A DNA stretch of 64,000 nt from Pyrinomonadaceae bacterium (GTDB lineage Bacteria; Acidobacteriota; Blastocatellia; Pyrinomonadales; Pyrinomonadaceae), in contig JACMJZ010000003.1 in NCBI GenBank assembly GCA_014380365.1, forward strand, positions 169,598-233,597, in the 5' to 3' direction. Numbering within the stretch: the first letter of the stretch is position 1; every line of letters begins with the position of its first letter. Below the pieces are notes generated by a model. The model saw only the letters and a list, made by a program, of their open reading frames with translations, did no database searches and had not been told where the DNA came from. Position numbers and translations under genes: made by a program. This document shows positions 8,267-22,371 of this stretch, piece after piece.

Positions 8267-8974
8267 TAACAGATTTTAGCATATGAGATTCAGAACTCTC
8301 GCTGGCGCAGAACATGTCCCAAAGCAAAACGCTCTTTCCCTCGACTAAGAAAAGAGCGCTTTCGCTGCCAACGTTTTGGTGTGCTGCGCAATTAGAGTCC
8401 TATACCACACTGCTCGTAAGTCAATGATTTTAGGTCAGCCTTTTATAACGCCTGACACAACAGAGTTCTATTCTGCGTATGGCTATCGTTCTCACCGCCT
8501 TCTTTTCCGGGGCATTAAAGTCCCATACTGCTCATGAATCTGGCCCTACCAGTCAGGTTAGCCCGCGATGATTAAGGCGGCCACTGCGAACTGTGCCGCT
8601 CCGCCAGTTCGAGTCACTTCACGCCCACTAGTGATTGAGCCACGTCCGCGCTCGGAGATTTTTTATGCTGAATCGAAATGCCACTCGAATGACGGTCGTT
8701 TTGTTCTTCGCGAGATTTTTTCATGGCTAGACTCGAGTTTTGGGGTTGAGGGGTTCTTGCGACCTATGAAGTAAGGCAACGCTGTTTAAGCAAAAGCAGC
8801 GCCCGCTATTCATCCAGGAAATCCCGTTCATTGATGAATGATCACGTGGTAGACTGCCGCGGCATGGCGGCGTGCATCGTTTCTTTTTTGATGTCCTGCC
8901 TATATAGATCTGCACCCTTAAGGGTTGCTTACCTTTTGCATCATGGTCATATATCGGTCCCGGTCCAGCGAGGT

Positions 8975-11605
8975 CTAATCAAGCAAATTGACTCGCCGCA
9001 ATAGATCTGCGAATCGCGGGTCGTCGCGGATGCTGTCAAAATATGGGTGGACTTTGAGCATACATAAATTAGGCGAACGGAACTCAAGTGCCTCGTAGAG
9101 GAATTGGAACGCTAAGTCTTTTTGGCCCAAGCCCAGGTGAATAAGTGCGATGGCGCTGGGATCGATGACCACGTCCTCTCGTTCATACTGCTTTTTCATC
9201 TCGTTGAGCAGTTTAAGCGCCTTGTCCCTCTTGCCTGCTTTAGCGTAGGCGTGCCCAAGCACGTCTGCCGACTCTGGGTCGCCGGCGATTCGGTGGTATT
9301 TTTCAAACTGTTCGATAGCCTCTTCATACATTCCTTTCTGCTCGTAGACCCAGCCGAGGTAGAGTATTCCCCCGAGGTAATTTGGATCCATTTCTAGTGC
9401 TTTCCGGCTTTGCGCCATCGCTTCATCGTACTGGCGTGCATAAAAGAAGACTTCCGCCAACTGCGCAATATAAACGGTGGAAAGCGGGTCGAGTTCAATC
9501 GCACGGTTTATTTCTGTGACGGCCGCCTGGTACCGTCCCCGGACGGATAGATTGTAGGCATTGTCATAGTGTGCCTTCGCGTAGCTGGGGTTGAGTTCAA
9601 TCGCGCGTTTTAACTCTCGATCAGCTGCAGCCCAATCGTATTCGCCATATACTTTAACCAAGGCTAGCGCCGCATGGGCTTCAGCGAGATTTTCGTCCAG
9701 CTCCAATGCCCTTATCGCCATTGGTCTCGCTTTTTCGACGGCCTCCTTGATCGTAATGTCACTCCACTGGCCCCTCAAAAGATATGTGTCGGATAACCCC
9801 GCGTAAGCAAGTGCATAGTTCGGGTCTTTTTCAATTGCTCGCCGGAAATACTCGATGGCCTTCTTGAAATCCTCGATAGTGCGCTTGTTCCAAAAGAAGC
9901 GTCCTTTCAAATAGAGTTGATAAGCTTCTGTGTTGTCGGTGTAGCTTTTAGCCAGTTGCTTCTGCTCCGCGCCGGTGAGACTCAATTGCAGTTGCTCGGA
10001 AATTTCTCTGGAGAGTTGTTTCTGCAACACCAGAATGTCAGACAGTTGGCGTTGATATTGCTCCCCCCATATATGTTTGCTGTTACGTACGTCCATTAAC
10101 TCCACGCTTACCGTTAGGTTATCGCCCCTCCGGGCAAGCTTGCCAACGAGTACCGCCTGCACTTTTAGTTTCCGCCCTACCGCCAGTGGATCGATGCTGC
10201 TCCCTTTGTAGGGAGAGACTGTGGTGTAGGCGATGACGTTCAGTTTTGAGATCCGGGAAAGATTGGTGATGATGCTCTCAGTAATGCCGTCGCTCAGGTA
10301 TTCGGTGTCGGGGTCGTTAACTTTGTTGACAAAAGGCAGGACGGCTATTGAGTTGAGAGAACCTTTGTCATTCTGGGTGGAGTAGTAAGTGTAGATAATA
10401 ATTGCCGCGATGATGACGAGAGCAACTGTCGCGAACACAGCGTTTCTGGTTCCGGTGGACCTTATTTTACTGTCTGCCGCGGTCGGTCCGGGGTGACCCT
10501 GCTTTGCTGTACGTTCCTCCAACCGAGTCTTGAGGTGGTGGAGGTCAGTGAGTAACTCCTTGATTGTCTTGTAGCGCTTCTCTCGGTCTTTGGTCAGCGC
10601 GTTCGTGATGATCCGTTCAAGTTCGCCAGGGAGCCCCGGCGCGTGAGACACGAATGGGGCCGGCTCGTGCTCGAGTATCGCCGCCAGCGTGTCGCTCGGC
10701 GTGTCGCCGCCGAAGGGCGTTCTGCCGGTCAACATTTCGTAGAGCACAACGCCGAGACTCCAGATGTCCGTGCGCGCGTCAACCGGAAGTCCGCGCGCCT
10801 GCTCCGGCGACATATAGCTGACCGTGCCCAGCAATGACCCGGGCGCAGTTCTAAAGGAACCCTCTTTCTCGTCTGCGAGTTCGTATGCCAATCCCTCGGC
10901 CAACTTAGCCACGCCAAAGTCCAGCACTTTGGCCTGGCCGTCGTTGCGTAGCATGATGTTTTCCGGTTTGATGTCGCGGTGCGTAATTCCTTTCAAGTGT
11001 GCCTCGTCTAGGGCCGAAGCGACCTGCATGGCGATGTCGAGCGCCTCGTTCGGCCTCATCGCCCCGCCCGTCTCAAGGCGCTCTCGCAGCGTCGCACCTT
11101 CCACGTATTCCATGACGATGAAGGGGCGGTTGTCTTCGGTCTCATTTACGTCGTGAATAATGCACACGTTTGGATGGGAAAGTGCTGACGCGGCGCGTGC
11201 CTCTTGCTCAAAGCGGCGCAAGCTCTCCTCGTCTTTGCTAAAGTAGAGCGGGAGAAGCTTGAGCGCGACCCGCCGATCGAGTTTAAGATCGTGTGCCAGG
11301 TAAACCTCCCCCATGCCACCCTCCCCGAGCATCGTGAGAATCTTGAAGTGGAGGATGGTCTGGTCTTTCTGCAACATTGCCCCCCCGCCGGCCAACAAAT
11401 CGCCGACTGGCATCACGGGCGGAATCTCCATGAAGTCTGGGTTCTGATCGTATAACCGGCGTAACGCTTTGACTTCTTCGCGCATTGATGCATCGTCAGG
11501 GCAAGCTTGGGCGAGCATTGCATCTACCTGATCGAGCGGGAGTTCGATGCTGTCGTAGAACAACTTCTTGAGTTGCTGCCAGCGCTCAGTGGGTGTCTTG
11601 GTCAC
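8975..11605 (-). CDS. Ser/Thr protein kinase with TM helix, TolB/FlgO-like segment and C-terminal TPR repeats
   Basis: MLGEGGMGEVYLAHD, ITHRDIKPENIMLRNDGQAKVLDFGVAKLAEG, SYMSPEQARG; TM segment VFATVALVIIAAIIIYTYY; SIAVLPFVNKVNDPDTEYLSDGITESI; multiple TPR units. Confidence 0.96.
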   Translation of the reverse strand: MTKTPTERWQQLKKLFYDSIELPLDQVDAMLAQACPDDASMREEVKALRRLYDQNPDFMEIPPVMPVGDLLAGGGAMLQKDQTILHFKILTMLGEGGMGEVYLAHDLKLDRRVALKLLPLYFSKDEESLRRFEQEARAASALSHPNVCIIHDVNETEDNRPFIVMEYVEGATLRERLETGGAMRPNEALDIAMQVASALDEAHLKGITHRDIKPENIMLRNDGQAKVLDFGVAKLAEGLAYELADEKEGSFRTAPGSLLGTVSYMSPEQARGLPVDARTDIWSLGVVLYEMLTGRTPFGGDTPSDTLAAILEHEPAPFVSHAPGLPGELERIITNALTKDREKRYKTIKELLTDLHHLKTRLEERTAKQGHPGPTAADSKIRSTGTRNAVFATVALVIIAAIIIYTYYSTQNDKGSLNSIAVLPFVNKVNDPDTEYLSDGITESIITNLSRISKLNVIAYTTVSPYKGSSIDPLAVGRKLKVQAVLVGKLARRGDNLTVSVELMDVRNSKHIWGEQYQRQLSDILVLQKQLSREISEQLQLSLTGAEQKQLAKSYTDNTEAYQLYLKGRFFWNKRTIEDFKKAIEYFRRAIEKDPNYALAYAGLSDTYLLRGQWSDITIKEAVEKARPMAIRALELDENLAEAHAALALVKVYGEYDWAAADRELKRAIELNPSYAKAHYDNAYNLSVRGRYQAAVTEINRAIELDPLSTVYIAQLAEVFFYARQYDEAMAQSRKALEMDPNYLGGILYLGWVYEQKGMYEEAIEQFEKYHRIAGDPESADVLGHAYAKAGKRDKALKLLNEMKKQYEREDVVIDPSAIALIHLGLGQKDLAFQFLYEALEFRSPNLCMLKVHPYFDSIRDDPRFADLLRRVNLLD

Positions 11606-12167
11606 CTTTGCTAATCTCCAGGCGGAGCCACGTTTTAGCCATCTTCCATTCGCGCTTCACGGTGGCCGGCGAGATTTTGAGGTCTGCTGCGATCTCTTCG
11701 ATAGTCCGGCCGCCGAAATACTTGAGCATCACAACCTGGCTCTGTCGATGATCGAGTTCAGCGAGTTTTTCGAGCGCCTCATTAAGCGCCAGCGGGTTCA
11801 CCTCCGGCTCAGAGGCGGCTTCTTCTGTCTCTTCGAATGGCAGTCTGATCCATGATCCGCCGCGTTTGTCTCGCAGTTTGCGACGGGCATGGTCAATTAG
11901 GATCCGTCGCATAATTTCGGCAGAAGCAGCGAAGAATTGGGCGCGCCCCTGCCAGTCTATGTCACGCTGGTTGACCAGACGGAGATATACCTCATGAATC
12001 AACGCCGTCGGTTGAAGGGTATGACCAGCTTTTTCCAGACGCATGTGGCGGGCGGCTTGGCGGCGCAGTTCGAGGTAGACGAGCGGGAACAACTGATCAA
12101 GCGCCCCCTGCTGACCATTACTACAGGCTACTAACAACCGTGTCACGCTATCTTGTGAGGAGGACAT
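11586..12167 (-). CDS. ECF-family RNA polymerase sigma factor (acidobacterial-type)
   Basis: QLFPLVYLELRRQAARHMRLEKAGHTLQPTALIHEVYLRLV...ILIDHARRK and sigma-4 HRQSQVVMLKYFGGRTIEEIAADLKISPATVKREW; overlaps the kinase start by 20 nt. Confidence 0.92.
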   Translation of the reverse strand: MSSSQDSVTRLLVACSNGQQGALDQLFPLVYLELRRQAARHMRLEKAGHTLQPTALIHEVYLRLVNQRDIDWQGRAQFFAASAEIMRRILIDHARRKLRDKRGGSWIRLPFEETEEAASEPEVNPLALNEALEKLAELDHRQSQVVMLKYFGGRTIEEIAADLKISPATVKREWKMAKTWLRLEISKGDQDTH

Positions 12168-12322
12168 AGGTTACCGCACGAAGGGATAAGTTCTCACAGC
12201 ACCATGAAGGATATGTCTGCGCCAGAATCAAGTCAACAAAAGCCCGACTCCCAGACGGGTTGAGAATCCATCCACAACCCTTTCAGCGTATGCCAGAGCC
12301 GTGTGAGCCTTTTCTCACCCGC

Positions 12323-12334
12323 TTGTCGCGACAA
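12323..12334. promoter_or_regulatory. Perfect 12-bp palindrome in divergent intergenic region; possible operator
   Basis: TTGTCGCGACAA between the sigma factor (leftward) and the secreted protein (rightward). Confidence 0.3.
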
Positions 12335-12475
12335 CAAGCAGGGGAACGTTAATTCGGAACGATCCCAGGCCTTTTGGGGCCGAGTCCTGAACTCTCTTTC
12401 AGGTCGTTTCACAGACTCAGGACGTGGAGTTGCGGTGCGACCCAACGACCCATGAGCCTTCAGAGGAGGTTACAA

Positions 12476-13132
12476 ATGTATACGAGAAAATTTTTCATCA
12501 TTCAAACCTGGATGCCGGCGCTGGCGTTGCTGCTCTTGATCTTGCCCGGCGTCTACGCCCAGGCGCCCCGCTCCGGTTGTGAAGGGCGCGCGGGGGATAC
12601 TGGTGCCAGTGTGCGCAGGTGGCCAGATGACTCAACCAGGGAGGTCGTCAAGCTCGACCCTCGGGAGAGATTGTGGGTCTATACGGACTACTCTAATCAG
12701 GACTGGTATCTCGTATCCGAGTGCAACGCCAAGGCCGGAGCCCGTTGCATTCGCCGTGACAATGTTGACCCTAATCCAAAGAACGATCCGCTCGTAGGCT
12801 TCGCGAGGAAGACATTAGTCTCGACCGTCCCGTCGAGATGCTTCAACCACCAGTCCGGAGGTCACCCGGATGCGGGCAAGCAATTCCGGCCTGGGCTTTC
12901 CTACATAGTGCGTGGGCGTGACGTTTACCTCCGATCAGTGGACAACGGGACGGGCCACCCTTACGGGCTCTTGCGTGCGAAGGAGAAGGACCGCTTCATC
13001 CGGGACAAAATTACTAGAGATCGGAAGTGGATGGATGGATGGGCCGTGAGCACTAACCGGGGAATCAACCCGCGCATGAGGTACGGGCGCGTACGCTACG
13101 AGAATGGACGCTACCTGCACCGGGGTGGGTAA
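12476..13132 (+). CDS. Hypothetical secreted protein
   Basis: ATG at 12476 preceded by AGAGGAGG; signal peptide MYTRKFFIIQTWMPALALLLLILPGVYAQA. Confidence 0.8.
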   Translation: MYTRKFFIIQTWMPALALLLLILPGVYAQAPRSGCEGRAGDTGASVRRWPDDSTREVVKLDPRERLWVYTDYSNQDWYLVSECNAKAGARCIRRDNVDPNPKNDPLVGFARKTLVSTVPSRCFNHQSGGHPDAGKQFRPGLSYIVRGRDVYLRSVDNGTGHPYGLLRAKEKDRFIRDKITRDRKWMDGWAVSTNRGINPRMRYGRVRYENGRYLHRGG

Positions 13133-13158
13133 GGACCGGACGGGTAATCACAACGTTG

Positions 13159-13194
13159 GCAAGGTGAACGCTCTTTGGAGGGCGTTGACCTTGC
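13159..13194. other. Strong intergenic hairpin
   Basis: GCAAGGTGAACGC...GCGTTGACCTTGC, 13-bp arms with one mismatch; no T-tract follows. Confidence 0.5.
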
Positions 13195-13240
13195 ACTTAA
13201 ACCGTCACTCAAGAAAATGTAGCATCGACAAGTAGGGCAT

Positions 13241-14743
13241 ATGACGTCTAAACAAATTACGAGCGCTCTCTTGTTTGCCTTTCTGATGTCTTCAACGGTC
13301 AGCGCGCAAGCGCCTGCTGTCAACACCTCAGCGAGTGTTGAACGAAGCCGGGAGACGCGAAAAGTCTTGGAGAGTAACGCCCTGGTGCTCATCGAACAAG
13401 TGATCAATGATTCGCCTCAACTGATCGATGAAAACAGAATCTTCGTACTGACGCGCGTGATTGACTTGATGTGGAAGCGCAATGAGAAGGAAGCGCGTTC
13501 CATCCTTCAAGAGGTGACGCGCCAGTTCCTCGAAACGGCGCCCACTCTCAATGGCGCCGAACCCGATGCGGAGTCTCTGCGAGATCGGCGGCTAGCGTTG
13601 AGGCAGGACCTGCTGGAGGTGTTGGCGCGCCATGATCCGAAAAGTGCACTTGAGTTCCTGCACGCTTCGCGGCAAGTCTCGGATCCTGATTTGGAATCCC
13701 AACTAAGTTTAAGCTTGGCATCCACAATCGGTGAGGAGGACCCCGACTTAGCTGTCCGGTTGGCAGAACAGAGTTTAAGACATTATATGTCTCTACAATT
13801 CGTTGACCTGGTGACCGTGATTCAGAACAAAGATCGCCTCGCTGCAGCGCGTTTGGCGAACAGCGTGCTGCTGAAACTTCAGACTGAAGACTTCATCACC
13901 TACCCGGAAGCTATCGAGGTCGCCTGCGGTTTGCTACGCGTCGGCGTAAGAAGTGGCCACGTTACTTCAGAGGGCCTCGCTCAGTACGCCTCGCCGCTGA
14001 TTGATGAGCAGGGCCTACGAAAACTGGCGGAGATCGTATCCGCGGCAGCCTTGCGAAGTCGGCCCTTAAATGCACAGACGCTAACATTGTTACAGGAAGT
14101 GCTCCCCGAAGTGGAGAGGTATGCACCGCGGACAGCCGCGAGGGTGCGCCGCAATCTCACAGCGCGCGGAGAGAGTACTCAGGGCGGCAATCCAGAGAAC
14201 GATGACTCTACCTCCGCGCCTGAAACGCTTAACGCCGACGGAACTGAGAAAGATGCCGCGTCACCATTTACCAAGCGCGTTACCGATTTCATTCGAGAAG
14301 CTGGTGAGAAGGAAACAGGAGGAGAGGCGGTGCTCGCGCTCGAACTTCTCAATCAGGCGCGCGGCCTGATTGGTATCCGCGCAAAGAACGCAGAGCAGTT
14401 AGTCGAGCAATTTCTGCTGGCGTGCGCTTATGCGTCGCTAGCCCCCCGACATGGTTTCGAAATTATCGAGACGATGGTAGACCGACTGAATCAACTGGCT
14501 GACGCGGTGGTGGTGATCGACGGATTTCTTAATGACGAGCAACTCGCGAGAGGCGACCAACTGCTCCTTGTTCCACTGGCGGCATCTTGGGAGCGGGTCC
14601 TAGAGGGACATAGGAGAGAGCTAGTTTGGCTCGCGCTGGCCGATTTCGACCGCATCAAATCCGTCACTGATGGCTTTCAGCGCGCGGAGGTAAGAATCAT
14701 GGCGCGACTGTTATTGGCGCAGAGCGTACTATCGGACGGCTAG
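13241..14743 (+). CDS. Hypothetical secreted helical-repeat-like protein
   Basis: 500-aa ORF with signal peptide (SALLFAFLMSSTVSAQA) and helical, ER-rich composition. Confidence 0.75.
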   Translation: MTSKQITSALLFAFLMSSTVSAQAPAVNTSASVERSRETRKVLESNALVLIEQVINDSPQLIDENRIFVLTRVIDLMWKRNEKEARSILQEVTRQFLETAPTLNGAEPDAESLRDRRLALRQDLLEVLARHDPKSALEFLHASRQVSDPDLESQLSLSLASTIGEEDPDLAVRLAEQSLRHYMSLQFVDLVTVIQNKDRLAAARLANSVLLKLQTEDFITYPEAIEVACGLLRVGVRSGHVTSEGLAQYASPLIDEQGLRKLAEIVSAAALRSRPLNAQTLTLLQEVLPEVERYAPRTAARVRRNLTARGESTQGGNPENDDSTSAPETLNADGTEKDAASPFTKRVTDFIREAGEKETGGEAVLALELLNQARGLIGIRAKNAEQLVEQFLLACAYASLAPRHGFEIIETMVDRLNQLADAVVVIDGFLNDEQLARGDQLLLVPLAASWERVLEGHRRELVWLALADFDRIKSVTDGFQRAEVRIMARLLLAQSVLSDG

Positions 14744-14802
14744 CGAAAGCTCAACGCTTGGTTATTATTCCGATACTATTCTTTTGGACGTGAAAGATAT
14801 TA

Positions 14803-15488
14803 TCAGTTCGCGTCTCTCAACTGGATAACTGGATGAATCTCCCAAGTGCCTTTTACGGGACTTGTCTGCCTACCATTCCTTATCCCGCGGCCCCCGCTTC
14901 TAGTGCAACTTGTGCCATGATGGGAATCAAGAAATAAGTAGCCAGTTGCGTCGACCTGCGGCGGAACACTAAACAAATAAGCACGCCCTCTAGATAGCGT
15001 CATGCCGCCATCAGCTCGAAACAGCTCCATCATCTTTGTGCGCGCATCGCAATAGGCTCCTCCCGGCGGGATTTCCACAATGATCTGCGCTTGTCGGTAT
15101 GGCGTGGCGGTATCCGCTATTTGGATGTGGAGATCGTTATCCGGATCAAGCTTCATGGCCATAACAAAGCCTTTCAATTTCACGGTGAGCTTCTCCATGT
15201 CCATTGCCCTCGTAGAAGGAACAGGGCGCGGTACATCTGGAACTAATGGACATACGAACGCCAAAAAATCACGAACGCTAATCGCTCGACCTCCATTTGT
15301 GGAGCGGGTAACCCAAGTTAGGACGTCGTAGCTTAACGCTCCTGCGGGAACTGCCTTGGAAAGTTAATGAACAGCCGATCGACTTGGGGAAGTACCGTGT
15401 GATTTCTTTTTCGCTTTGCGGGTGTGGAAAACGCAAGGCAAAGAACCAGTAGGCACGAAAGTGGAAAAACAAGGGTGAATCGCTTCAT
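14803..15488 (-). pseudogene. Secreted hypothetical protein split by an apparent 1-nt frameshift
   Basis: MKRFTLVFPLSCLLVLCLAFSTPA...VDRLFIN (ATG at 15488) in one frame; SKAVPAGALSYDVLTWVTRSTNGGRAISVRDFLAFVCPLVPD...LRDAN* in the next. Frames join if one T is added to the TTT run (AAA at 15360-15362 on +). Confidence 0.65.
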
Positions 15489-15764
15489 GGGAGAACTCCT
15501 AGGATTCAGAGTCGTGAAAGCAACCCGGTTGTATTCTAAGAACTAAGCGGTGTCAATGAATGTTTCGACTGGGGTTTTAGTCTGGGAACACTGTTCAACT
15601 GTTCAACTAGGGGGCCTCCTGAGATAGCACTGGCTTCATCGGCCTACACGTTTGCGGAATTGCCTTCTCAGCAGCGTGCCCTCATCGCAAGCAACAGACC
15701 GCGAGGCATAGGCTACGCTTCGCTCGACAAGCTTTGCGATGCTCGCAAATGCCAGCCCAGGTAT

Positions 15765-16031
15765 TCACTCGCACAGTGCTTCAAGAACGGCGATTGTGAC
15801 GCACATATTCTTCCGCCAGCTCTTCAAGGGTCCGCTTAACCTTGTCACACGGCCCAAGACAGCGATTTGGACTGCATCCTTGAATGACTCGTTGTCCTTC
15901 CAGGAAACGTCCACCGAACCTAATCGCTTATCCTGAAAGCGGACTATGTACTCGTCCAGGCCCAAGGGTTCCACTTGTTGAGCGGTTAGCTGAAAAGGGA
16001 TTAGGTTCGTAGCCCAAAGATCATCAAGCAC
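15765..16031 (-). CDS. Small hypothetical protein
   Basis: 88-aa ORF MLDDLWATNLIPFQLTAQQVEPLGLDEYIVRFQDKRLGSVDVSW...; start uncertain. Confidence 0.5.
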   Translation of the reverse strand: MLDDLWATNLIPFQLTAQQVEPLGLDEYIVRFQDKRLGSVDVSWKDNESFKDAVQIAVLGRVTRLSGPLKSWRKNMCVTIAVLEALCE

Positions 16032-16214
16032 CGACTGTGCTTCTAACGTGAGTTTATCGATCGGTCATAGAGCCTCCTCTGATGGGCAAGGAGATAAAAT
16101 CTAACTGGTCGGGTAAGGTACAAAGCGGTGGGAGGAGCATCAGCGTTATCACAAACAGCTTGGCCGTCAAGCGAGCGCTGATCGAAATGTTTCTTGGGGC
16201 GTTCAAACACCTCA

Positions 16215-17540
16215 TCAATCAGGCCGTTGAACGTCTAACCGGGCGATTAGATCTGCCTGCTCGTAGTAGTGATACGAGTTGCTCATGAAGTAATTCATCT
16301 TTTGCTCGATCCAGACGCGATCAATCTCGGATCGCTTTCGGTTTGTGACAAGGTACACCTGGTGCGGCACGTCGTTTTGGATAGGCTGCCAGTAGCGATG
16401 TAATGCGGTGATTCTCCGTCGCAACGCTGAGTTCAGTTTCAAGTCACCGTCGGTGTTCGACGCTATCGCGACCCAGGTATCGGCTAAACGTTGGAGTCGT
16501 ACGCGAGCGATGGGAAGGCTAGACGCCGCCACGCTATCGGCGTAGTCGCAGGCCACGATGTGGACTGCCTGGTAATCGCAATCCGGAACCTGCGCTCCCT
16601 TGTGATCAATGTGAAGCGCATCTATCCCTCCGTCTCCTGAGCCCTGCGTGATTGCTTCCTTAATTGCATCGTTGCTGAGATGGACGATTCGCTCAAGGAA
16701 AAGCCAAACGAATGCCTCTGCGTCTGAAGCGAGAGCATGACGTCGGCGAGTGTTCTGAACGAGTTGGTGGATTTGTTCGTAGGGTTTCGATGCCATCGTC
16801 GAATTAGTTTTGGTCGCTGCATCAAGCGCTTTCAGGTATTGTTCATAATCGTTCCGACCCCAATACTCTATGGCCCACATCCCACTGGAGCGGCCACCTC
16901 TCTTGCGCAGACGATAGCAAACTGCGCCATAAGCAAAAAGCAACGTGGCGAGCAGAACCAAGTTCAACGCCTGCCCAGGGGCCAGCGCGGGGATACTGTA
17001 AAGCCGCCAAGCTGGTACCATCGGAGATGGTTGATAGTGGATCACCAGGCCCAGAACCTGCGCTCCCACCCAAGTGAGACCCAATGTGACGATGTAAGCA
17101 GGTACAATAACGATCACGTATTCGACTATGTGTTTCCAGAATCTTGTACGACCATAAGTGCAAGCCAGGTCTGCAAAGTTGGCTCCCAGTGAGAAAAGAG
17201 TGGCGACCTGCGCCATAGTTTCAAAAAGCGGAGTCTCTACAAGTACCACTTCAAATTTTAGCGGTAGGGCAGGGAAAAAGATCGCCATCAGTATCCAAGT
17301 CAGCACAACTGCCGGTAAATAATAGAGAAGAAAGCAATACACCAGCCTGACAACGATCCAGAGTGGGATCTCCCAAACGCGTGGAGATTTCAAGGGAGTG
17401 CTGCCGAACCGTCTTAGACGCTGGTCCGACTTCCAAGCGGCGAACAATGTGGTAGCCGCAACGACCAGGGAGAGCGATATCAAGTGTGGGTGTAAATTTT
17501 CCATTTTTGCGCGGGCGGGCGGCAACTGTGCCCGCGGCAA
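16215..17540 (-). CDS. Membrane protein with C-terminal GxGDGGIDA motif (AIPR/PD-(D/E)XK nuclease-like region), possibly truncated by frameshift
   Basis: Several N-terminal hydrophobic helices; DAIKEAITQGSGDGGIDALHID...YQAVHIVACDYADS resembles the nuclease-like N-terminus of AIPR-type proteins; a plausible continuation lies in another frame to 16044. Confidence 0.55.
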   Translation of the reverse strand: MPRAQLPPARAKMENLHPHLISLSLVVAATTLFAAWKSDQRLRRFGSTPLKSPRVWEIPLWIVVRLVYCFLLYYLPAVVLTWILMAIFFPALPLKFEVVLVETPLFETMAQVATLFSLGANFADLACTYGRTRFWKHIVEYVIVIVPAYIVTLGLTWVGAQVLGLVIHYQPSPMVPAWRLYSIPALAPGQALNLVLLATLLFAYGAVCYRLRKRGGRSSGMWAIEYWGRNDYEQYLKALDAATKTNSTMASKPYEQIHQLVQNTRRRHALASDAEAFVWLFLERIVHLSNDAIKEAITQGSGDGGIDALHIDHKGAQVPDCDYQAVHIVACDYADSVAASSLPIARVRLQRLADTWVAIASNTDGDLKLNSALRRRITALHRYWQPIQNDVPHQVYLVTNRKRSEIDRVWIEQKMNYFMSNSYHYYEQADLIARLDVQRPD

Positions 17541-17705
17541 GTTCTCGACGACACGCGCGAGCGGTACCCTAGATCTGAGGATCGAATCAGGCTACTGCCC
17601 ACGCTTGGGTTAGCGTGTGGTTCGCGGAAACTCTGTTGGACTTCCGCCTGATTGTTTAGCGAGACGGATTATGTAACTCATGAGTATTAAGTTCAAGGGT
17701 TAGGG

Positions 17706-17927
17706 TTAACCCAAGAGGAAAGACATCGACGATGCGGGTGGCTTGTCCAAAGCGAATAGATTCCTGCGGACGCTGCTTGCGAAATGATTTGGTTTGCGAG
17801 AGCGTATGGATGGCTTCGAGCCAGTTGGTTTGCCCTGACCATTGTTACCGTGAATGATGTTGAGGCCCGATCCCCAAAAGATTTTGCCGCTTAGATTTCG
17901 AAAATTGTTTACTTCGAGAGCGTCCAC
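17706..17927 (-). pseudogene. recF: recF 5' fragment (pseudogene)
   Basis: ALEVNNFRNLSGKIFWGSGLNIIHGNNGQGK vs RecF at 7100-8266 FVEVNNFRNLNGKIFWGPGLNIIHGHNGQGK; a 1-nt shift then gives TNWLEAIHTLSQTKSFRKQRPQESIRFG vs TNWLEAIHTLSRAKSFRTSRLQESIRFG. Confidence 0.92.
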
Positions 17928-17939
17928 GGTGATCTCTAT

Positions 17940-18010
17940 GCCTCTGTGGTGAGTATTTGCAAACCAATTTCACCACTGAGACACAGAGAACACAAAGGTG
18001 GCACCGAGGA
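17940..18010. repeat. Intergenic palindromic CACAGAGA-word repeat
   Basis: CTCTGTGGTGA ... TCACCACTGAGACACAGAGAACACAAAGGTGGCACCGAGG. Confidence 0.7.
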
Positions 18011-18061
18011 AAACCCAAACCCGGTAATTGCCCTTTGCCGGCCTTACTTAATCAAGCAGGT

Positions 18062-21000
18062 CTAGTTGAAACCTCCCACCGCGATAAGCGTGGTCCGGGG
18101 GTTGTTGTCCAACTGTCGCCAGCCGGGACAGCTGTCGCCGGTACAGGGCGGGCCGACGTAACGCCAGATCCGACCGTCGCTGTGCCGTTGATAAAGGTGA
18201 TCGCCGGTGGCGACGATCTCGCGCGTGTTGGAATTCTTGTCGAGCCGTTCCCATCCCGGGCAACTCGCGCCGGTGCACGGCGTGCCCGTGTAGCGCCAAA
18301 TCTTGCCGTCGTTGTGCAGTTGATAAAGCTGCGTGCCGGTTGCTGCTATGGCGGAAGTCCTGGCGTTACTGTCTAGTAGCTGCCATCCGGGACACGAGGA
18401 GCCGGTGCAGGGTGTGCCGTTGTAGCGCAAAATCTTGCCGTCGTTCTGAAGCTGGAAGAGTTGGGTTCCCACCGCGAGAATGCTCTTCGTGTTGGGATTC
18501 TGATCCAGAAGCTGCCACCCGGGGCAGGCTGCGGCAGTGCAGGGCGCGCCCGTAAACCGCCAGATCTTCCCGTCATTGTGCAATTGAAACAGCCCCGTAG
18601 GAGCCGCAGCGATTGCAATCGTCTTCGGATTTCTATCGATGCCCTGCCATCCCGGGCAACTGCTGCCGGTGCAGGGCGTGCCGTTATAGCGCCAGATCTT
18701 CCCGTCGTTGTGAAGCTGAAACAATTGGATGCCAGCTGCTGCAATCGTCTTGGTATTAGGATGGTTGTCGAGCGGCTGCCAACCCGGACATGACGCTCCG
18801 CTGCACGGCGTGCCCGTGTAGCGCCAAATCTTGCCGTCGCTATACCGCTGGAACAACTGAGCACCGGCGGCAACGATCTGAGCCGTCCGCGTATTGTCAT
18901 CAAGTCGTTGCCATCCGGGGCACGATTCGCCGTCACACTCCGTGCCCGTATAGCGCCAGATCTTGCCGTCGCTGTGCAATTGGTAAAGCGGATCGGTGTG
19001 AAGCTGATAGACGGTGTCGCCGCCGCCCATCATCGGTGGATCGCTCGCCACGATCATTCCGGTGCGTGGATTGTTGTCCAGGAGCTGCCACCCCAGGCAC
19101 GATTCGCCGCTGCAGGGCGTGCCCGTGTAACGCCAGATCCGTCCGTCGTTATGCACCTGAAAGAGGTCATCGCCCATAGCCGCAAGACTGACGGTGCGGG
19201 AATTCCGGTCGAGCCGCTGCCAGCCCGGACAATTTTCTCCAGTGCACGGCGTGCCTGTGTAACGCCAGATCCAGCCGTCATTGTGCAGTTGGTATAACTG
19301 ACTGCTTGCCGCGACAATGGCCACGGTCTTCGCGTTGCGATCGAGTCGCTGCCAGCCGGGACAATTTTCTCCGCTGCACGGAGTTCCGTTATAGCGCCAC
19401 ACCGCGCCGTCATTGTGAAGCTGATAGAGATCGCTGCCGCCTGCGGCAATGCTGACGGTCTTCGCGTTGTTGTTGAGCCGCTGCCAACCGGGACAGTTAT
19501 CGCCGGCGCATGGAGTTCCCGTGTAACGCCAGATCGCGCCGTCGTTATGCAGTTGATAGAGCTGATTGCCCGCGGCGGCAATTGCCACTGTCTTTGCGTT
19601 CCGGTCCAGCCGCTGCCAGCCGGGACAACTGTCGCCGCTGCACGGGCTGCCGGTGTAACGCCAGATCCAGCCATCGGTGTGCAACTGGTAAAGCTGACTC
19701 CCCGCGGCGGCAATAGCTGCTGTCTTTGAATTGCGATCGAGTCGTTGCCATCCCGCGCACGAATCTCCCAGGCACGGACCGCCTGTATAGCGCCAGATCC
19801 AGCCGTCATTGTGCAGTTGATAGAGAGCCTGATCGTGATGCGTGCCAGCGGCGGCGATTTGTACAGTCTTCGGATTGTTGTCGAGCCGCTGCCAGCCCGG
19901 ACAACCGGCGCCGCTGCACGGCGGGCCGGTGTAACGCCAGATCGGCGCGCCGGCGACTTTGCGGTCCGAAGTGGCAATTCTGGTCCAACCCGCGACCGAA
20001 GGAACCCATCGCTTAAACCCGGTGGTGGCAATCGACCGCAGCGCAAACACCATGTAGTCTCCCGGCGGCGCGGCCTCGGCGCTGTAAGGAGCCTTCACGG
20101 TCACGCTCGAAGCGGTATTGGAGACGACCTCAAGCTGAATCAATCGCTGATCGGTGTCAAACGCATGGGTCACACTGCCCGGACGCATGAGCACGACGCG
20201 GCCCACGCTCAGGCCCTGTGACCCACCGATCGCAATCTCGTAGGACCGGCCGTCCGGCGCCATCGTCGCCGGAACCGCGGTTACCACCGGTCGATCACTT
20301 CTACCGACGTACCATGGCGTGAAAATCTCGACTCTCTCTTCAGTCCGCTCAAGGTGCTGCTCGGAACCGTTACAGCTGGCTACCGTGCCGCAGGTTGAGC
20401 CACTGTGTTCCTGGCTGGCGCTGGCGGTCCAAACCCGACCATCAGGCAGCAGCAGGGCGACGCCGTGATAGTTTCGCGTGACCGTCGCGGCTGAGGTTAC
20501 GAGCCAATTGTTCGTTTCCGGATCGTAAATCTCCGGCTTGCGGACGCCCATTGCGTCGTGCTGCGACGGACCCACTCCGCCACTCACAAAGACCTGGCCG
20601 GTCGGCAACAGCGTAGAATTTCCGAAATTACGCTCTCCAATGTCGGATTGTCGCGTCCCCATGATCTGCCACGTCGGAGTGGCCTGACCGAGGTCCTTGA
20701 CCCATGCTTTGACTCCATTGATCATGGCGAAGCGCATTTGAGGATAGCCACCAAGATTCGGCACGAGCGGCAGTAAGACTCCGGTGCCCTTCCAACTCGC
20801 GTCGTTGTGAACACCACCCGGCTCGCTCTCCGGCACGACGTCGGCGCCCGCGGGCGCCACCGTGTTTGCACCGGGATCGAAAAGGTAATTCTTGCGATCG
20901 TGCAGGGCGGGCGATGCGACGAAGAGCTTGCCGTTGGGAAGCAACGTCACACGTGGATAGGTCGCCTGCGTTTGCATCGTCACGCCCGTCGAAGTCCATG

Positions 21001-21556
21001 ACGTCGTCCCGTAAGTGAGCTTTTGAATCGTCTCCCCGCCTCCGGTGGGGCGGCCAGGGAAGATGAATATGTCGTTGACACCGGCGACGAGCGTTGGATA
21101 CCAATGCACTGCGCCTCCGGTGATCTGCCCAAAGACTCCGCCAGCCGGGTCGTATCGCGCCGAACTAGCAATGCCGGTACCATTGTCCGGGCCATAACCC
21201 AGCAGGCCGCCCTGAAAGATCACACCACCAGTATTGTCGTGAGCGTGAGCCGAACAGAACGCATCTTTGCCGATTCCATACGGCGCCGGCGAAGGCAGCT
21301 TCGCGCTCCACGTTCCGCTGGCGATGTCGTAGAGGCGCGTGTCTTCTGTTCCCCAGGCAAACAACTCGTTGAAGCTGCTGCCACCGACGACGAGGATCTT
21401 GTTATTGCGCAGGAGTGTCGAGTGAGTCGCCAGCAAGTGGCCGGGCGCTGGGTTTCCGAGTGACCAGGTGCCGAACGTCAAATCTTCATTCGCTCTCGCG
21501 TCGAAAGAGACGGAGATAAGGACGAGGGCAAGGAGAAACTTGATTACGAGTCGCAT
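18062..21556 (-). CDS. Secreted galactose/glyoxal oxidase-like copper-radical oxidase fused to 14 tandem IWRYTG-type repeats
   Basis: Signal peptide MRLVIKFLLALVLISVSFDARA; kelch/GO-like core with FCSAH, HWYPT, RNYHGVALLLPDGRV and GSVTHAFDTDQR; 14 copies of IWRYTGxPCxGxxCPGWQxLDxNxxTxxIAAxGxQLYQLHNDGx. Confidence 0.9.
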   Translation of the reverse strand: MRLVIKFLLALVLISVSFDARANEDLTFGTWSLGNPAPGHLLATHSTLLRNNKILVVGGSSFNELFAWGTEDTRLYDIASGTWSAKLPSPAPYGIGKDAFCSAHAHDNTGGVIFQGGLLGYGPDNGTGIASSARYDPAGGVFGQITGGAVHWYPTLVAGVNDIFIFPGRPTGGGETIQKLTYGTTSWTSTGVTMQTQATYPRVTLLPNGKLFVASPALHDRKNYLFDPGANTVAPAGADVVPESEPGGVHNDASWKGTGVLLPLVPNLGGYPQMRFAMINGVKAWVKDLGQATPTWQIMGTRQSDIGERNFGNSTLLPTGQVFVSGGVGPSQHDAMGVRKPEIYDPETNNWLVTSAATVTRNYHGVALLLPDGRVWTASASQEHSGSTCGTVASCNGSEQHLERTEERVEIFTPWYVGRSDRPVVTAVPATMAPDGRSYEIAIGGSQGLSVGRVVLMRPGSVTHAFDTDQRLIQLEVVSNTASSVTVKAPYSAEAAPPGDYMVFALRSIATTGFKRWVPSVAGWTRIATSDRKVAGAPIWRYTGPPCSGAGCPGWQRLDNNPKTVQIAAAGTHHDQALYQLHNDGWIWRYTGGPCLGDSCAGWQRLDRNSKTAAIAAAGSQLYQLHTDGWIWRYTGSPCSGDSCPGWQRLDRNAKTVAIAAAGNQLYQLHNDGAIWRYTGTPCAGDNCPGWQRLNNNAKTVSIAAGGSDLYQLHNDGAVWRYNGTPCSGENCPGWQRLDRNAKTVAIVAASSQLYQLHNDGWIWRYTGTPCTGENCPGWQRLDRNSRTVSLAAMGDDLFQVHNDGRIWRYTGTPCSGESCLGWQLLDNNPRTGMIVASDPPMMGGGDTVYQLHTDPLYQLHSDGKIWRYTGTECDGESCPGWQRLDDNTRTAQIVAAGAQLFQRYSDGKIWRYTGTPCSGASCPGWQPLDNHPNTKTIAAAGIQLFQLHNDGKIWRYNGTPCTGSSCPGWQGIDRNPKTIAIAAAPTGLFQLHNDGKIWRFTGAPCTAAACPGWQLLDQNPNTKSILAVGTQLFQLQNDGKILRYNGTPCTGSSCPGWQLLDSNARTSAIAATGTQLYQLHNDGKIWRYTGTPCTGASCPGWERLDKNSNTREIVATGDHLYQRHSDGRIWRYVGPPCTGDSCPGWRQLDNNPRTTLIAVGGFN

Positions 21557-21740
21557 TGGTGCTCCTTCGCGAGGCAATATGGGTTAGAGCCGAGAACTGG
21601 TTGCGAGTCTGAGAGAGAAAGATATCAACCAATCAGGATCAAATGATCCGGAATAGCTAATCCCCGGGTTAGAACTTTAGTTCCAACCTAAAAATGAGAA
21701 TCACTACGAGAGTCCGCGACTTAGACGTCGCTGCACACTG

Positions 21741-21800
21741 GTATACAACTTTAATTCCGAGTTTGGAACTTTAATCCCCGGTTTAGAACTTTGATTCCGA
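21741..21800. repeat. Three tandem 20-nt repeats (GTTTrGAACTTTAATyCCGA)
   Basis: GTATACAACTTTAATTCCGA / GTTTGGAACTTTAATCCCCG / GTTTAGAACTTTGATTCCGA; a further copy near 21668. Confidence 0.85.
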
Positions 21801-22229
21801 AGGACATGTATAGCGAGACTTGTGCCACACCGTGACTGGTTCTCGGGCGTTGATGGGTAACTGCACAGGAACAGGCGGGTAAGCTGCTTCGATTCGCCGG
21901 ATTCTTCCATTGCGCAAGTCCAATCAGAGGGCAGGCTCTTCTATCTGTTTGGGCAGTCTTGCTATCCGAGAAGATAGGTCGAAGAAAGAGGGAGAGGCAT
22001 CCGACTCGAAGAGAACTCAAGACGCTGAAACAACGTGGGTGGCAAAATGACTACGCAGTTGCCACGGTCAGTCTTTCAGAGATTTACGGACCGTGTACGC
22101 GTTGTCAGGAACAATCATGTAATAGCTATCGAACTGAAACGGAATGCACAACAACTCTAATACTACCCAACAGGGTAGCGTCTGCAATCGGTCAAGATAT
22201 TTACGTAATCTTTTGCAATGGGTTAGCTT

Positions 22230-22336
22230 AAAGTCCGCGACTTTCATGTCGCCGGTGATTGAGTTTCACCAAGAAAAGTCCGCAACTCTCATGTCAAAGT
22301 CCGTGACTTTCATGTAAAGTCGGCGACTTTCATGTC
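22230..22336. repeat. Four ~20-21-nt repeats AAAGTCCGCGACTTTCATGTC with internal dyad
   Basis: Units at 22230-22250, 22275-22295, 22296-22315, 22316-22336; AAAGTC..GACTTT dyad in each (imperfect in unit 2); degenerate copy near 21709. Confidence 0.85.
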
Positions 22337-22371
22337 GCTGATCATTTGGCGGTGTTAGTTCGAGGAGAAAC

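What the first reader, a model, noticed from the sequence alone, without database searches (positions are those of the whole stretch)
18062..21556. Putative copper-radical oxidase carrying 14 tandem Cys-pair blades (14 = 2 x 7)
The N-terminal half shows the galactose/glyoxal oxidase ligand pattern: FCSAH (crosslink Cys), HWYPT (Tyr), RNYHGVALLLPDGRV (Tyr-His) and GSVTHAFDTDQR (His). The C-terminal half is 14 consecutive ~44-aa units, IWRYTGxPCxGxxCPGWQxLDxNxxTxxIAAxGxQLYQLHNDGx, nearly all with a C-x5-C pair. The last is partial and unit 7 carries an insertion. Fourteen is compatible with two 7-bladed propellers (a 5-, 6- or 7-blade closure is inference), and each blade could be pinned by a disulfide. 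The pairing of a radical oxidase with a tachylectin/tectonin-like array suggests a secreted carbohydrate-targeting enzyme.
Basis: partly seen in the sequence, partly recalled or inferred. Interest (0 to 1): 0.72.

Follow-up and report, generated by a model that had tools for sequence, protein, structure and literature searches.

The report
Copper oxidase fused to double propeller
A soil-type Acidobacteriota bacterium encodes a probably secreted copper enzyme of the galactose/glyoxal-oxidase family joined to 14 repeats that most likely form two seven-bladed, lectin-like rings; each part is of a known kind, but the combination is rare and appears undescribed.

Summary
Residues 539-1164 are a tectonin-like array. 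Two 7-bladed propellers are favoured because a strand is duplicated exactly after unit 7, the same 7 + junction + 7 plan recurs in other phyla on other N-terminal domains, and the predicted array has 28 + 28 strands; ring closure was not seen in coordinates. In 127 inter-blade loops of 12 proteins the two cysteines are both present (112) or both absent (15), never single, suggesting a disulfide staple within the loop. A same-genus orthologue (76% identity) keeps all 14 units under purifying selection (Ka/Ks 0.18 oxidase, 0.09 array). The gene lies in a ~14 kb insertion between dnaN and recF that five same-genus genomes lack. Substrate and glycan ligand are unknown. Verdict: new variant of a known kind.

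The parts
18062..21556 (-). whole gene, 1164 aa, AA5 oxidase + 14-unit tectonin-like array
   Evidence: orthologue L027/L028
21491..21556 (-). putative Sec signal peptide MRLVIKFLLALVLISVSFDARA (residues 1-22)
   Evidence: read by eye from the translation; no dedicated predictor run
19982..21484 (-). AA5 catalytic module: kelch propeller + GO-like E-set domain (residues 25-525)
   Evidence: Pfam PF09118 1.7e-17 and Kelch hits; PDB GlxA 1.2e-26; NCBIfam GlxA model 141 bits, below its cut-off of 800
21254..21256 (-). C101, predicted thioether-crosslink Cys
   Evidence: aligned to FCTGH of GlxA; conserved in relatives except L009
21098..21103 (-). W152-Y153: second-shell Trp and crosslinked Tyr (GlxA-type WY pair)
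   Evidence: aligned to RWYPT of GlxA; relatives mostly RWYP; Trp directly before the crosslinked Tyr in FgrAldOx (W509/Y510), GlxA W288 in the same position (PMC13094651)
20465..20470 (-). Y363-H364, second Tyr and first His ligand
   Evidence: RNYH motif aligned to GlxA; YH kept in 18 of 18 relatives
20165..20167 (-). H464, second His ligand
   Evidence: SVTH motif aligned to GlxA and relatives
18992..19948 (-). propeller A (residues 537-855): strand 4 + 6 whole blades + strands 1-3
   Evidence: unit listing; DSSP of models
18974..19042 (-). junction in unit 7 (residues 839-861): insertion with duplicated strand 3, VYQLHTD-P-LYQLH
   Evidence: two separate strands 848-853 and 857-861 in the model
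18065..18991 (-). propeller B (residues 856-1164): strands 3-4 + 6 whole blades + strands 1-2
   Evidence: unit listing; DSSP of models
8267..22371 (.). ~14.1 kb insertion between dnaN and recF that holds this gene
   Evidence: dnaN-recF-gyrB directly adjacent in five same-genus genomes

Best explanation
A secreted (or periplasmic) mononuclear copper radical oxidase of the GlxA/glyoxal-oxidase type. Copper and O2 build a C101-Y153 thioether radical cofactor that oxidises a small aldehyde/alcohol or the terminal alcohol of a glycan, releasing H2O2. The oxidase is tethered C-terminally to a double seven-bladed tectonin-like propeller that acts as a multivalent glycan-targeting module and holds H2O2/aldehyde production at a glycan surface. 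The C-x4-C pairs are disulfides stapling each loop between one blade's strand 4 and the next blade's strand 1. Shown: homology, residue set, 7 + junction + 7 plan, Cys co-occurrence, purifying selection. Inferred: ring closure, disulfides, secretion, glycan binding, substrate, biological role.
For: AA5: PF09118 and Kelch, PDB GlxA 1.2e-26 then fungal AA5 enzymes, NCBIfam GlxA model 3.8e-41, ligand residues aligned to GlxA and relatives. Array: PF19193 above cut-off. 2 x 7: duplicated strand after exactly 7 units; the same 7 + junction + 7 in L030 and L031; single arrays of 7 in L032, L033, P0003, L052, L062; array model pLDDT 83 with 1+24+3 and 2+24+2 strands; precedent WRAP, 14 blades forming two 7-bladed propellers (PMC6805158). 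Cys: 112 loops with two, 15 true loops with none, 0 with one. Orthologue 76% identical with Ka/Ks 0.18 and 0.09. Same array on a reprolysin-like protease, an M15/SLT-like protein and other N-terminal regions fits a portable targeting module. PLL seven-bladed lectins bind fucosylated and O-methylated sugars between blades (PMC12203525).
Against: No binding or activity data. Full-length model is poor over the oxidase (mean pLDDT 58; only two sequences deep there), so copper-site geometry is untested. No coordinates were available; Foldseek matches to tandem WD40 double propellers have low TM-scores (about 0.3-0.4) and that to 7-bladed RCC1 is 0.55 with rmsd 8.7 A, so closure is not proven. Exceptions to seven: L034 has 5 units, L029 has 13 before the junction, P0002 ends after 5 blades of the second ring. 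No solved structure matches the array by sequence. No copper chaperone or glycan-synthesis gene was identified beside the gene.
Confidence: 0.6

Rival explanations
1. The array is not a lectin but a protein-protein interaction or structural/stability scaffold, with the oxidase acting on a diffusible small aldehyde.
For: Many propellers bind proteins; Foldseek's nearest matches are WD40 scaffolds. No ligand was tested. The N-terminal partners are diverse.
Against: Sequence matches the Tectonin family, whose members include lectins for O-methylated sugars (PMC5238581), and several N-terminal partners look like extracellular or wall-directed enzymes.
Confidence: 0.25
2. The 14 units form one large ring, or rings of another size (6+8, or 6-bladed as in fungal tectonins), rather than 7+7.
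For: Known tectonin propellers are 6-bladed (from memory); L029 has 13 units before its junction and L034 has 5 units; low Foldseek TM-scores.
Against: The duplicated strand falls after 7 units here and in L028, L030, L031 and P0002; a 28 + 28 strand budget gives two complete 7 x 4 rings; five of six single arrays have exactly 7.
Confidence: 0.12
3. The oxidase part is catalytically dead or acts as a kelch adhesin.
For: HWYP replaces the usual RWYP; the domain is divergent (about 33% identity to other Acidobacteriota AA5 proteins). A related AA5-like protein, L009, has lost the Cys.
Against: All five active-site residues and the second-shell Trp are intact, also in the orthologue; Ka/Ks 0.18.
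Confidence: 0.1

Closest known systems
GlxA, Streptomyces lividans radical copper oxidase (PDB 4UNM)
   Same: Best PDB match (1.2e-26), full ligand set, WY second-shell pair, kelch propeller + E-set
   Different: 141 bits vs 800 cut-off of the GlxA equivalog model; GlxA works with CslA (PMC11022532); here a 626-aa array follows and no cslA-like neighbour was identified
Galactose oxidase (AA5_2, PDB 1GOF)
   Same: Same fold family and ligand types
   Different: No Trp at the W290 position as judged from the sequence; uses W152 next to the crosslinked Tyr, as in AA5_1/GlxA; galactose activity untested
WSC-AA5_1 fungal aldehyde oxidases (FgrAldOx)
   Same: AA5 with appended, disulfide-rich modules of a type reported to bind polysaccharides, and a W-Y pair (PMC13094651)
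   Different: N-terminal WSC domains, not a C-terminal double propeller
Tectonin domain (PF19193)
   Same: 52 bits against cut-off 30
   Different: Added C-x4-C inter-blade loop, 44-aa units, counts of 7 rather than 6
PLL/PHL seven-bladed Photorhabdus lectins
   Same: 7 blades of four strands with sites between blades (PMC12203525)
   Different: Single rings; no detectable sequence match
WRAP (Npun_R6612, PDB 2YMU)
   Same: 14 near-identical blades forming two 7-bladed propellers (PMC6805158)
   Different: WD40 family, no oxidase

Membership tests
AA5 copper radical oxidase | Cys, two Tyr and two His of the copper/Tyr-Cys site | tested here: met
   C101, Y153, Y363, H364, H464 aligned to GlxA and relatives
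AA5 copper radical oxidase | seven-bladed kelch propeller + C-terminal E-set domain | tested here: met
   Kelch_6 7.3e-8 and PF09118 1.7e-17 by sequence; blade number not counted, and the 3D model is too weak to add to this
AA5 copper radical oxidase | copper binding, crosslink and H2O2-producing activity | not testable with these tools
   needs purified protein
GlxA (NCBIfam NF052501 equivalog) | score at or above 800 bits | tested here: not met
   141 bits
AA5_1/GlxA-type second shell | Trp directly before the crosslinked Tyr | tested here: met
   W152-Y153
Pfam Glyoxal_oxid_N (PF07250) | gathering score 37.5 | tested here: not met
   12.5 bits, E 0.087
Tectonin (PF19193) | gathering score 30 | tested here: met
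   52 bits
Tectonin lectins | six-bladed ring | tested here: inconclusive
   unit counts and strand budget indicate 7 + 7; closure not seen in coordinates
Tectonin / PLL lectins | glycan binding | not testable with these tools
   no ligand data
PLL seven-bladed lectins | sequence homology to solved PLL structures | tested here: not met
   no PLL hit with array profiles

The most novel reading that the evidence does not exclude
The Cys-stapled 7 + junction + 7 array is an undescribed, portable double-propeller lectin module that bacteria of several phyla attach to unrelated secreted enzymes; in this lineage it aims a radical oxidase at a specific glycan surface, giving localised H2O2 and aldehyde formation.
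Probability: 0.4. Interest if true: 0.55.

Novelty: new variant of a known kind. Interest (0 to 1): 0.42.

Why it matters
AA5 oxidases are useful biocatalysts, and bacterial ones outside Streptomyces are little studied. A natural fusion to a multivalent, disulfide-stapled double propeller would show how bacteria aim radical oxidases at glycans, and would offer a modular targeting part. The junction rule (a duplicated strand between two rings) also makes propeller counts readable from sequence.

Tried and rejected
W187 was first taken as the stacking Trp equivalent to galactose oxidase W290; rejected, because W290 lies 18 residues after Y272 (galactose oxidase sequence from memory) and the FgrAldOx paper places the AA5_1/GlxA Trp directly before the crosslinked Tyr, so W152 is the candidate. 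Viral contigs gave no relative of the array. Array profiles match no solved structure (the two weak hits look unrelated). Full-length AlphaFold model too weak over the oxidase. Foldseek hits judged only suggestive. NCBIfam and low-scoring Pfam hits inside the repeats (DfrA18, RuBisCo_chap_C and others) dismissed as repeat-driven. An automatic motif count gave 8 before the junction in P0001, L031 and P0002; in P0001 the extra one lies in the linker (AGWTRIATSDR), and hand counts give 7.

Full report
Observation. The ORF lies at 18062-21556 on the minus strand, 1164 aa from ATG 21556.

Oxidase. Pfam finds GO-like_E_set and Kelch. The best PDB match is S. lividans GlxA, followed by fungal AA5 enzymes. 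In the GlxA alignment C101, W152, Y153, Y363, H364 and H464 fall on the cofactor, second-shell and ligand motifs; counting along the aligned chain with an offset of 30 (my inference) gives C121, W288 and Y289 for the first three, W288 agreeing with the PDB title of the W288A mutant. Relatives from Acidobacteriota keep the set, mostly with RWYP in place of HWYP; one, L009, has lost the Cys. The Trp directly before the crosslinked Tyr is the AA5_1/GlxA arrangement, not that of galactose oxidase (PMC13094651). The protein is not a GlxA orthologue (141 bits vs 800).

Array. Tectonin PF19193 scores above its cut-off. Reading the unit as GWQxLD / KTxxIAAxG / LYQLHNDG / IWRYTG gives four strands. The array starts with a lone strand 4 and ends with strands 1-2, and unit 7 has a duplicated strand 3 (VYQLHTD-P-LYQLHSDG) between them. 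This partitions as strand 4 + 6 blades + strands 1-3, then strands 3-4 + 6 blades + strands 1-2: two rings of seven. The array-only AlphaFold model (pLDDT 83, pTM 0.64) has 28 + 28 strands in this order.

Comparative evidence. A genome-contig scan found seven loci. L028 is the same contig as the G005 orthologue and is titled Pyrinomonadaceae, which places the window's genus. L030 (Verrucomicrobiota) and L031 (Acidobacteria) have 7 + junction + 7 on other N-terminal regions; L032 (Methylocystis) has 7 units on a reprolysin-like protease; L033 (Calothrix) has 7 units between M15 peptidase-like and SLT-like regions; L029 (Nitrosospira) has 13 + 7; L034 has 5. P0002 (Cupriavidus plasmid) has 7 and then 5; P0003 (Azospirillum), L052 and L062 have 7. 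Units match one-to-one between the window and L028 (13 of 14 best matches on the diagonal) but not with L030 or L031 (2 of 14 each), so the count is kept while units turn over. Cys pairs are both present or both absent in 127 loops (one of the 16 zero-Cys matches was a false match in the oxidase).

Distribution. The fusion was seen only in the window and G005 among the genomes searched. The genome-contig scan used exact peptide seeds, so distant fusions could be missed.

Selection. Between the window and L028, Ka/Ks (a simple Nei-Gojobori count) is 0.18 over the oxidase and 0.09 over the array; synonymous sites are near saturation, so the values are rough.

Context. dnaN, recF and gyrB are adjacent in five same-genus genomes, with a short dnaN-recF gap holding a hairpin in those printed; in the window ~14.1 kb lies between dnaN and recF. 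The gene's GC is about 60-63% against 46-53% in the flanking windows. The orthologue's neighbours differ (penicillin acylase-like, Oar-like TonB protein, by eye). This suggests lateral movement, but no integrase or transposase was identified among the ORFs scanned.

Mechanism. Most likely an exported oxidase that generates an aldehyde/acid product and H2O2 close to a glycan held by the double propeller. GlxA's role with CslA in glucan deposition (PMC11022532) is a model for function, not evidence for it here.

Noticed in passing
window 8267-22371: ~14.1 kb insertion between dnaN and recF at the chromosomal origin region, absent from five same-genus genomes; carries an ECF sigma factor, a Ser/Thr kinase-TPR protein, several ORFs without Pfam hits and the oxidase gene. 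The dnaN-recF hairpin stays next to recF.
   Followed up: partly
window 21708-22346: Four copies of a short palindromic repeat around AAAGTCCGCGACTTT between the oxidase gene and dnaN, REP-like.
   Followed up: no
L009 and L014 (G013, G129): AA5-like domain preceded in the same open frame by a region that looks by eye like a multicopper oxidase; the L009 copy has lost the crosslink Cys.
   Followed up: no
L007: AA5-like protein with FG-GAP-like repeats (ADLAVFRPSEGNWYI, by eye) in its N-terminal part.
   Followed up: no
L029: Nitrosospira protein made of a signal-peptide-like start and 20 near-identical units (13 + junction + 7), apparently recently amplified.
   Followed up: no
L052, P0003: Cys-less versions of the array in which the inter-blade loop is about five residues shorter.
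   Followed up: partly
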